Positions 3,564-12,194 of a DNA stretch of 22,255 nt are shown here, piece after piece. Made by a program: the position numbers and the translations under genes. The notes beneath the pieces are model-generated. The model saw nothing but the letters and a program-made list of their open reading frames with translations. It was not told where the DNA came from and did no database searches. Each line of letters begins with the position of its first letter. The stretch's first letter is position 1. This DNA is from Saccoglossus kowalevskii (lineage: Eukaryota > Hemichordata > Enteropneusta > Harrimaniidae), in NCBI RefSeq assembly GCF_000003605.2, contig NW_003124894.1:882250-904504 (forward strand), given 5' to 3'.

Positions 3564-3913
3564 TTAGCCGCTGATGTACTGGGGGTCCCTCTTGCCGGAG
3601 TAAAATTGGGAGTCTTTCTTGCCACTGATGAACTGTGGGTCTCGTTTGCCGGATATGTACTGCGGGTTTCGCTTCCCCGATATGTATTGCGCCGCTCTCT
3701 TCCCGGAGATATATTGTGGTTCCCGCTTTCCCGATACAAACTGTCCGGCAGCCTCTCGTTTGCCACTGATGAACTGGGGCTCAGGGTCACGTTTTCCAGC
3801 AAACCCGTAACCAGCACTGAGGAACTGTCTTTTTCCTGGATAGCCGTTACTTAGAAATTGCCTTTTCTCTGCCGGCTCTTCTATTACCTCTCCTTCAGGT
3901 TTTTCGTAAACGC
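3564..3913 (-). CDS. multi-copy amidated neuropeptide precursor, coding exon 2
   Basis: Second coding exon of a 155-residue secreted prepropeptide; residues 41-155 lie here and residue 40 (Gly) is split by the intron. An acidic spacer ends at KR (56-57). Ten peptides follow, all but the last ending in G plus KR, or once KK: QFLSNGYP, QFLSAGYGFA, DPEPQFIS, EAAGQFVS, EPQYIS, AAQYIS, NPQYIS, DPQFIS, DSQFYS, DPQYIS. The last copy ends in Gly directly before TAA. By established prohormone biology, convertases would cut at the dibasic sites, a carboxypeptidase would trim the basic residues, and PHM/PAL would turn each Gly into a C-terminal amide. The first two peptides start with Gln and may become pyroglutamate. 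There is no Cys in the mature region, so no disulfides. The acceptor is CTGTAG before 3913. The family is not recognised; PRQFV-amide and MIP-type peptides resemble it only loosely. That this is a neuropeptide precursor is nearly certain; its receptor and action are unknown. Confidence 0.93.
3588..3722 (-). repeat. five tandem 27-nt peptide-coding units
   Basis: Residues 104-148 are five consecutive nine-codon units, each a hexapeptide followed by GKR or GKK, so the DNA has an exact 27-nt period. A truncated sixth unit plus the stop follows. Upstream copies are eleven codons long (33 nt). The regular period points to tandem duplication of the peptide unit. The most deviant copy is DSQFYS, which follows the sole GKK site. 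Confidence 0.9.
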
Positions 3914-5122
3914 CTACAGTTGTGAAAAACAAATAGGTACAAAAGTGTTATAAAAAACGTGAATTAAATAGTATCAATAACTGTTTTTATGATAATTCAA
4001 ACATCAGCACTGTCATGATTGAAATGATTGATAGTCAAAAAAGAAAACATGATAATGAAGCATATTTAGCATGATATTTTATTGGTTTGACGGAGTTTCT
4101 TTTTTGCAGATACGACTCTCAATTTCGTCTACTAGTATTTCGCAAAGGGGAGGTCAATTGGGCTACTGCGACCGTTTCACTGTTCCTTTTAATCAGCGGA
4201 AACCCAATACGTCGTTTTATCGGATTTATATAAACCTATTCGGTAAGCTCTATAACAGAAACCCGACTTTGTTTTAATTTCGAAAAAAAGTATAGAGAAG
4301 AAAATGAATTGAATTAAAAGTAGAAACCCGCTGTGATTCAGGATTGGAAAAACAAGTCCGAAGGAGATGAATCACGCCCGTTGACAATTATCCCATTCGA
4401 AAAGTTTCAATTGAAAAAATAAATAAATGAAACTGGATTATATATAAATGTGCTTGATCAAATCTAAACGTTTTCACGAGCAGGGAATGTACGAATGACA
4501 TGTAGGTTAATTCCGGTATATCAAAGATTAAAATCACTCCCAACTATACCTTTAGTTATTTAAATTCCGAGACTTGGGCAATTTTGACTTCTGTCAAGAA
4601 GGAAATTGATTTATTTCCGTCGCGCGAAATCGAACATTTTCGACTAGGAGCCCAGAACGATCGATGACATTTTATTCATGATCATGGGACGATGTTTCAC
4701 ATTTAGTCAACCGAAGTAATCACTATTGGCGATGTAATTTAAGAAGGGCATTCCAAACGAATGAAGAGGTTCGGTTTTAATTGCTAATGCGAGATACTGG
4801 AATACACGGTTTATATGTTAAAGGGTGGATAGCCTACAGTTATCGCAGTGTAGGCAATAAAGCAAAACACGTAAGAGACGGGAGAAAATGTTTATTCATT
4901 CCGATTGTATCTGGCGAGTCTAAATAAGTATTTGGGTCAACATCGCGTTACTATGGTAATCGATATTAAAACCCGATTCTTCGATTAACCCATCATTCAT
5001 TTTAGAGATAATGGACTAGTATCTTTATCGTATCTGTCGAATCTTAATAGCCCTATTTCCATATATTAGTCGGCGTGGATTCTGTTAAAAACACATAACG
5101 CAGTAAAAGTTGCCAAAGTTAC
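3914..5122 (-). other. phase-1 intron of the neuropeptide gene
   Basis: The donor is CAG|GTAACT at the end of exon 1 (exon ends at 5123). The acceptor is TTTTTCACAACTGTAG before 3913. Exon 1 ends with one base (G) of a codon and exon 2 supplies GC, giving Gly40 and keeping the frame through the peptide array. An RFX/X-box-like imperfect palindrome sits at 4947-4960. No other exon was recognised inside. Confidence 0.85.
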
Positions 5123-5240
5123 CTGGTAGATAGTTTAAATCTTTGTAAGCTTCTTGTTCCTGGGCACTTGCTAGAAAGCAAGACCAAACAAATACGATCA
5201 CAAAAAGACACGTTCCATATTTGTAACTACAGCGCCCCAT
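5123..5240 (-). CDS. neuropeptide precursor, coding exon 1 (signal peptide)
   Basis: Encodes residues 1-39 plus the first base of codon 40. ATG is at 5240-5238. The protein starts MGRCSYKYGT, with Arg3 and Lys7 forming a short positive n-region. A hydrophobic stretch follows at about residues 11-23 (CLFVIVFVWSCFL), then A-S-A with predicted cleavage after residue 26. The mature propeptide would begin QEQEAYKD. This is a textbook secretory signal, and it joins the array exon in frame through canonical splice sites, which is why the two are called one gene. The shorter frame that opens at 3932, inside the intron, is not the real start: its first residues come from the splice acceptor and form no signal peptide. 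Confidence 0.88.

Positions 5241-12163: not shown

Positions 12164-12193
<30 letters not shown>
12164..12193. repeat. (CAT)10 microsatellite
   Basis: Ten uninterrupted CAT units. No coding frame extends through it, so it is treated as an ordinary trinucleotide repeat. Confidence 0.95.

Positions 12194-12194
<1 letters not shown>

What the first reader, a model, noticed from the sequence alone, without database searches (positions are those of the whole stretch)
3564..5240. Unrecognised amidated neuropeptide family with a Q-[F/Y]-I-S-amide core
Seen: two exons on the minus strand join in frame through GTAACT/CTGTAG splice sites. They give a 155-residue precursor with a clear signal peptide and ten peptides, nine followed by GKR or GKK and the last by the stop. 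Eight end in Q-[F/Y]-[I/V/Y]-S-G. Known: this is the architecture of multi-copy amidated neuropeptides processed by convertases, carboxypeptidase and PHM/PAL. Inference: a C-terminal Y/F-I-S-amide does not match the FMRFamide, MIP, PRQFV-amide or SALMFamide types I know, so it may be a lineage-specific or undescribed family.
Basis: partly seen in the sequence, partly recalled or inferred. Interest (0 to 1): 0.85.

Follow-up and report, generated by a model that had tools for sequence, protein, structure and literature searches.

The report
Acorn-worm TRH-type neuropeptide precursor gene
This is a real acorn-worm gene for a string of tiny amidated signalling peptides, but they look like the worm's version of the known thyrotropin-releasing-hormone family rather than a new family; the one unusual point is the short, often proline-bearing spacer in front of most copies.

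Summary
In detail: two minus-strand exons (5240-5123, 3913-3564) join in frame into a 155-residue precursor with a signal-like start and ten peptides, nine ending in GKR/GKK and the last in G-stop. The genome is that of the hemichordate Saccoglossus kowalevskii or a very close relative: mitochondrial gene order and tRNA-Lys anticodon fit, and a published S. kowalevskii primer matches exactly once. 'Undescribed family' is not supported. Q-[F/Y]-X-S-amide fits the echinoderm TRH-type pattern (pQWYT-, pQYPG-, pQYFA-amide; pQXXXamide), including extended copies beside the tetrapeptides. The genome holds one clear TRH-receptor orthologue. An S. kowalevskii TRH-type precursor is already in print (GI:187216047) and TRH expression in this species has been mapped; I could not read that record, so identity with it is inferred. 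One oddity: in eight copies two or four residues (DP, EP, NP, AA, DS, DPEP, EAAG) stand between GK[RK] and Gln. Dipeptide trimming before pyroglutamate formation is possible but untested; the peptides may equally keep them.

The parts
5123..5240 (-). Exon 1 (coding part): start Met, signal-like sequence and first spacer residues, ending in CAG|GT donor
5163..5240 (-). Putative signal peptide, residues 1-26, inferred cut ASA|QEQ
   Evidence: hydropathy; cleavage site judged by eye
3914..5122 (-). Intron, 1209 nt, GT...AG, splits a Gly codon
3564..3913 (-). Exon 2: acidic spacer, all ten peptides, stop codon
3837..3860 (-). Peptide 1 QFLSNGYP(G)KR, Q directly after KR, C-terminally extended copy
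3798..3827 (-). Peptide 2 QFLSAGYGFA(G)KR, Q directly after KR, C-terminally extended copy
3765..3788 (-). Peptide 3 DPEP-QFIS(G)KR
3732..3755 (-). Peptide 4 EAAG-QFVS(G)KR
3705..3722 (-). Peptide 5 EP-QYIS(G)KR
3678..3695 (-). Peptide 6 AA-QYIS(G)KR
3651..3668 (-). Peptide 7 NP-QYIS(G)KR
3624..3641 (-). Peptide 8 DP-QFIS(G)KK
3597..3614 (-). Peptide 9 DS-QFYS(G)KR
3570..3587 (-). Peptide 10 DP-QYIS(G)-stop

Best explanation
This is a TRH-type (thyrotropin-releasing-hormone-type) neuropeptide precursor gene of the acorn worm Saccoglossus kowalevskii, very probably the one already cited. Shown: gene structure, ten amidation-competent copies, no second copy found in the assembly, species (or a very close relative), and a TRH-receptor orthologue in the same genome. 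Inferred: the signal peptide is removed; prohormone convertase cuts at KR/KK; a carboxypeptidase trims the basic residues; PAM turns the terminal Gly into an amide; the peptides act on the TRH-type receptor. Least certain is the N-terminus: I lean slightly to an aminodipeptidase removing the X-Pro/X-Ala-type spacers two residues at a time until Gln is exposed and cyclised, giving pQFIS-, pQYIS-, pQFVS- and pQFYS-amide beside the longer pQFLSNGYP- and pQFLSAGYGFA-amide. The confidence is for the TRH-type identity, not for the trimming.
For: Precursor anatomy. Species: 17,037-bp mitochondrial contig with inverted COX1 (Pfam match) and, recognised by eye, ND2 ahead of ND1 and ND5 next to CYTB, with tRNA-Lys TTT: features that PMC3121625 (passages) and PMC2697986 (passages) give for S. 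kowalevskii; one of two S. kowalevskii FoxJ2/3 cloning primers printed in PMC4077281 (passage) was tested and matches exactly once, reversed control 0. Family: PMC4772807 (passages) gives A. rubens TRH-type as 11 x QWYT-G plus one extended QYPGGAPIGLD-G between dibasic sites, mainly pQYPG-NH2 in S. purpuratus and pQYFA-NH2 in A. japonicus, positions 2 and 3 aromatic or cyclic, and lists 'Skow, S. [quoted passage not shown] PMC5627052 (passages) gives pQXXXamide in a brittle star. Here position 2 is F or Y and position 4 Ser in 10 of 10 copies, and the first two copies are extended. Receptor: a human TRHR segment finds one outstanding locus, C174:45840-46442, 56% identical, E 7.2e-54; the next of 150 listed rows is 32%, 6.3e-20 (150 of 438 candidates scored). 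Its frame (L049) finds TRHR in the PDB at 4.9e-60 against 2.6e-27 for the next molecule and keeps the Tyr and Asn aligned with TRHR 106 and 110 in TM3 (that these contact pGlu is recalled). PC2, glutaminyl cyclase and PAM are reported with generally overlapping expression in this species, and TRH was mapped in juveniles (PMC10508912, passages). No second copy: of 17 rows matching the exon-2 protein 16 are other loci, none with a stop-free frame of more than two G[KR][KR] sites.
Against: Gln directly follows the dibasic site in only 2 of 10 copies, whereas the echinoderm copies are described as bounded by dibasic sites. Position 3 (I, L, V, Y) is aromatic in only 1 of 10 copies. hmmscan against Pfam-A found no family at E <= 1, so any TRH model in it (recalled to exist) does not match. 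The sequence behind GI:187216047 was not readable, so that it is this gene is not shown. The composite echinoderm-motif search was swamped by satellites and did not list this gene, so it neither finds nor excludes another TRH-type gene. No transcript, peptide or receptor assay.
Confidence: 0.82

Rival explanations
1. A TRH-type precursor whose mature peptides keep their spacers (e.g. DPQYIS-amide, EPQYIS-amide): no dipeptide trimming and no pyroglutamate on 8 of 10 copies.
For: Classical dibasic processing alone gives these peptides. FSEFLGamide, which has no N-terminal Gln, is the ligand of the Platynereis TRH-type receptor (PMC4772807 and PMC5818035, passages). In cnidarians X-Pro N-termini are themselves described as protection against aminopeptidases (PMC7523074 and PMC9545775, passages), so a DP-, EP- or NP-start (5 of 10 copies here begin with one) could be a mature end.
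Against: The spacers vary in residue and length but are always 2 or 4 long, with Pro or Ala second in 8 of 10 dipeptides; the receptor keeps the TRHR 106/110 Tyr and Asn (pGlu role recalled); two copies have Gln directly after KR.
Confidence: 0.4
2. A lineage-specific amidated family unrelated to TRH, with a Q-aromatic-X-Ser motif arrived at by convergence.
For: Tetrapeptide similarity is weak evidence alone; Pfam-A gives no match; 12 motif strings found no paper that looks like a neuropeptide paper in the held library.
Against: Motif, copy number, extended copies, sister-phylum pattern and the presence of a TRH receptor all agree with TRH-type.
Confidence: 0.12
3. Not a functional gene: a decayed or chance open frame.
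For: No transcript could be examined.
Against: 9 amidation sites in one frame against at most 2 in 300 approximate shuffles; intact frame across two exons; both Ser codon families at one conserved Ser.
Confidence: 0.02

Closest known systems
Echinoderm TRH-type precursors (A. rubens ArTRHP, S. purpuratus, A. japonicus, O. victoriae OvTRHP1)
   Same: Signal peptide, many short copies between dibasic sites, Gln at the core start, aromatic position 2 and small position 4 in the A. rubens, S. purpuratus and A. japonicus tetrapeptides, C-terminal Gly for amidation, an extended copy besides the tetrapeptides (A. rubens)
   Different: Here 8 of 10 copies have 2 or 4 residues between GK[RK] and Gln; 10 copies against 12, 19, 19 and 21
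S. [quoted passage not shown]
   Same: Same species as far as tested; the same family by motif
   Different: Its sequence is not in the text that I saw; identity with this gene is inferred
Cnidarian multi-copy amidated precursors
   Same: Gln cores followed by Gly and dibasic site, with extra residues between cleavage site and Gln; dipeptidyl aminopeptidase processing was proposed for one sea-anemone precursor (only the reference title seen, in PMC9545775; that its spacers are X-Pro/X-Ala dipeptides is recalled)
   Different: There Asp or Glu usually stands directly before Gln (DQGRFGKR, EQGRFGKR), here Pro, Ala, Gly or Ser does; other cores and phylum; no claim of homology
Annelid EFLGamide (TRH-type of Platynereis)
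   Same: Orthologous receptor family; amidated short peptides; N-terminal extension tolerated
   Different: Glu in place of Gln, C-terminal Gly-amide

Membership tests
TRH-type neuropeptide precursors | N-terminal signal peptide | tested here: met
   Hydropathy of residues 8-25 and ASA|Q, (no dedicated predictor)
TRH-type neuropeptide precursors | Multiple short copies bounded by dibasic sites | tested here: met
   10 copies
TRH-type neuropeptide precursors | C-terminal Gly for amidation on each copy | tested here: met
   10 of 10
TRH-type neuropeptide precursors | Core Gln followed by an aromatic or cyclic residue (echinoderm pattern Q-X-X-X-amide) | tested here: met
   F or Y after Gln in 10 of 10 copies; 8 of 10 are Q-X-X-S-G against the pattern. 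Position 3 is aromatic in 1 of 10
TRH-type neuropeptide precursors | Gln exposed at the N-terminus and cyclised to pyroglutamate | tested here: inconclusive
   Directly after KR in 2 of 10 copies; 8 of 10 would need a further trimming step. The annelid member FSEFLGamide lacks it
[quoted passage not shown]
   C174:45840-46442, reciprocal best match TRHR
TRH-type neuropeptide precursors | Peptide activates that receptor | not testable with these tools
   needs expression assay
SALMFamides | C-terminal LxFamide or FxFamide | tested here: not met
   Before the Gly, 8 of 10 peptides end in Ser, one in Pro, one in Ala; motif as in the abstract start of PMC3594158 in the listing
Cnidarian-style N-terminal processing | Non-dibasic residues, typically Asp or Glu, flanking the N-terminus of the immature peptide | tested here: inconclusive
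   Extra residues are there in 8 of 10 copies, but the one next to Gln is Pro (5), Ala, Gly or Ser (1 each), never Asp or Glu. As dipeptides: Pro second in 6 of 10, Ala in 2, AG and DS the rest; D, E or N first in 8. Anatomy only, no test of processing

The most novel reading that the evidence does not exclude
A deuterostome TRH-type precursor whose active pyroglutamyl tetrapeptides are released only after stepwise dipeptide removal (X-Pro/X-Ala) from the N-terminus: an unorthodox N-terminal processing of neuropeptides, a kind that PMC9545775 (passage) says is not present in Bilateria. This would mean either an ancient route kept in hemichordates or an independent origin.
Probability: 0.3. Interest if true: 0.6.

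Novelty: already known. Interest (0 to 1): 0.3.

Why it matters
It gives the gene structure, peptide list and candidate receptor of the TRH-type system of a hemichordate, the sister phylum of echinoderms, so that the ligand-receptor pair can be tested directly. The spacers also pose a clean question: is the N-terminus of these peptides trimmed by an extra step, as described for cnidarian but not bilaterian neuropeptides?

Tried and rejected
Literature: 12 motif strings (six each) gave 5 and 10 papers, none on neuropeptides judging by titles and abstract starts; the 40 of 3,607 papers listed are on zonisamide and bisamides. 'Samide' as a mollusc family name appears once, in PMC6425005, citing a paper not looked up (not found by the full-text search); it could not be compared. 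Surveys of xenacoelomorphs, hexacorals, nemerteans with brachiopods and phoronids, molluscs and crinoids were seen by passages only: QFI/QYI or QFL/QFY strings, where asked, occur 0 times; 'samide' occurs once (an RPRSamide context) and once. Cnidarian, mollusc and crinoid origins, considered first, were dropped after the mitochondrial gene order. Jekely 2013 and Mirabeau and Joly 2013 are not held (one search was a wrong id). All 15 papers opened were seen as passages, none whole.

Paralogues: one search gave 17 rows, one the gene itself. All 17 loci were counted for amidation-site arrays: outside the gene no frame held more than two sites (two in L013-L015 and in L024). Seven of the 17 loci went to alignment: L013, L016, L017 and L018 are tandem repeats; the rest were not read closely. 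Composite motif search (repeated unchanged as 113 because both were queued in one turn): 111 rows, 150 of 169 candidates scored; 20 loci were read: 19 show tandem repeats in the frames printed, for L030 the match lay outside the frame printed; none had an array (two sites in one frame of L046). Inconclusive, because this gene itself was not listed. DPPIV-type peptidase (PF00930), PAM (PF01082) and 18S rRNA (RF01960) searches did not complete. tRNA and Rfam at gathering threshold: nothing in the window.

Full report
What is there. On the minus strand, exon 1 (5240-5123) and exon 2 (3913-3564) join across a GT...AG intron of 1209 nt into a 155-residue precursor. After a signal-like start and an acidic spacer come QFLSNGYP-GKR, QFLSAGYGFA-GKR, DPEPQFIS-GKR, EAAGQFVS-GKR, EPQYIS-GKR, AAQYIS-GKR, NPQYIS-GKR, DPQFIS-GKK, DSQFYS-GKR and DPQYIS-G-stop. 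Nine G[KR][KR] sites in one frame compare with at most two in 300 approximate dinucleotide shuffles. The splice is a sequence inference; no transcript was seen.

Whose genome. The window lies at C1729:882250-904504 of a 572-Mb assembly. The COX1 search led to a 17,037-bp mitochondrial contig, C4830, with COX1 on the minus strand. Read with the echinoderm mitochondrial code, and with the other genes recognised by eye, it shows ND2 before ND1, ND5 next to CYTB, and ND6 on the minus strand; ARAGORN gives tRNA-Lys the anticodon TTT. PMC3121625 (passages) says that COX1 inversion and a transposition of ND1 or ND2 separate S. kowalevskii from Balanoglossus, and that its tRNA-Lys has UUU where Balanoglossus and echinoderms have CUU; PMC2697986 (passages) notes nd5 next to cob. 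One of the two S. kowalevskii FoxJ2/3 primers printed in PMC4077281 (passage) was tested: it occurs exactly once in the assembly, its reversed control not at all. A close congener is not formally excluded. That 17,037 bp is the length of the public S. kowalevskii mitochondrial record is my recollection.

What it is. PMC4772807 (passages) describes echinoderm TRH-type precursors: in A. rubens 11 copies of QWYT-G and one longer QYPGGAPIGLD-G between dibasic sites; mainly pQYPG-NH2 in S. purpuratus and pQYFA-NH2 in A. japonicus; positions 2 and 3 aromatic or cyclic. PMC5627052 (passages) gives pQXXXamide for a brittle star, 21 copies. The acorn-worm peptides fit: Gln, then F or Y in all ten, a variable third residue (aromatic in one of ten, a departure) and Ser fourth in all ten, with two extended copies first in the array. 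The same paper's figure legend lists an S. [quoted passage not shown] kowalevskii TRH in the proboscis base and trunk, and reports PC2, glutaminyl cyclase and PAM in generally overlapping regions. The record itself could not be read, so 'this gene is that record' is inference. Pfam-A gave no family for the precursor at E <= 1.

Receptor test. A 196-residue human TRHR segment from memory gave 150 matches (150 of 438 candidates scored), one far ahead: C174:45840-46442, 56% identity, E 7.2e-54; the runner-up is 32%, 6.3e-20. In return the locus's open frame (L049) found TRHR in the PDB at 4.9e-60, the next molecule being a GRPR fusion at 2.6e-27. The alignment keeps the Tyr and Asn at TRHR positions 106 and 110; that they hold pyroglutamate is recalled. 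The genome therefore encodes a TRH-type receptor whose ligand should exist.

Copy number. The exon-2 protein finds only itself strongly (3.4e-70); the other 16 rows (E 3.9e-7 to 8.5) come from loci with no frame of more than two amidation sites, and the four looked at closely are tandem repeats. A composite echinoderm-motif query returned 111 rows; 19 of the 20 loci read show tandem repeats and none an array of amidation sites, but it did not list this gene, so it says little.

How it works, and the open point. Signal peptide removal, cutting at KR/KK, carboxypeptidase trimming and amidation are inferred from anatomy and from the enzymes reported for this species. In eight copies Gln is preceded by DPEP, EAAG, EP, AA, NP, DP, DS and DP: always two or four residues; of the ten dipeptides Pro is second in six, Ala in two, with AG and DS the exceptions; D, E or N is first in eight. 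These copies share descent, so they are not independent observations. PMC7523074 and PMC9545775 (passages) describe cnidarian precursors in which Asp or Glu, and sometimes other residues, flank the immature peptide, trimmed by an unidentified aminopeptidase or endoproteinase that stops at Gln, X-Pro or X-Pro-Pro; [quoted passage not shown] This cuts both ways: the even-length, Pro/Ala-rich spacers look made for a dipeptidase, but an X-Pro end is described as a protected mature end in cnidarians, and annelid FSEFLGamide shows that the family tolerates an extension. I lean slightly to trimming to pQ[F/Y]IS-amide, at 0.30 for the full novel case; kept spacers are the main rival at 0.40.

Neighbourhood. 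Left of the window on the + strand, about 21 to 12 kb before its start, four exons match the Pfam wnt family (E 1.4e-16 to 2.2e-34); that it is Wnt2 is recalled. Nothing else in the window was recognised: of nine other open frames given to Pfam-A seven had no match at E <= 1 and two had weak ones below their cut-offs; tRNA and Rfam scans were empty.

Verdict. A real, intact gene with no second copy found, ordinary in kind and very probably the known S. kowalevskii TRH-type precursor. Interest 0.3, mainly for the spacers and for pairing ligand and receptor genes.

Noticed in passing
L002:8976-9398, L003:3965-4369, L003:6337-6615, L003:7686-8018 (about 21 to 12 kb left of the window): Four exons of a Wnt-family gene on the + strand (Pfam wnt); the Wnt2 label is recalled.
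   Followed up: partly
window 12164-12194: Perfect CAT microsatellite, 10.3 copies.
   Followed up: no
either side of the window (L004 and L005): The window is bounded by long N runs of 9,349 and 7,399 bases, so its ends are assembly gaps or withheld stretches.
   Followed up: no
L002, about -27.3 to -25.7 kb from the window start: A tandem repeat open in several frames (TNQGTLYMYPFRTGQTKAHCTYTLSELDKPRHT-like).
   Followed up: no
C343:304038-304673 (L013-L015): Satellite reading YVSKQRNMQ in one frame; the strongest false match to the peptide array.
   Followed up: yes
window 5290-5273 (-): A possible splice acceptor (TTATTTACTCATTGCAG|GT) 32 bases before the start codon, suggesting a further 5' untranslated exon upstream (by eye).
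   Followed up: no
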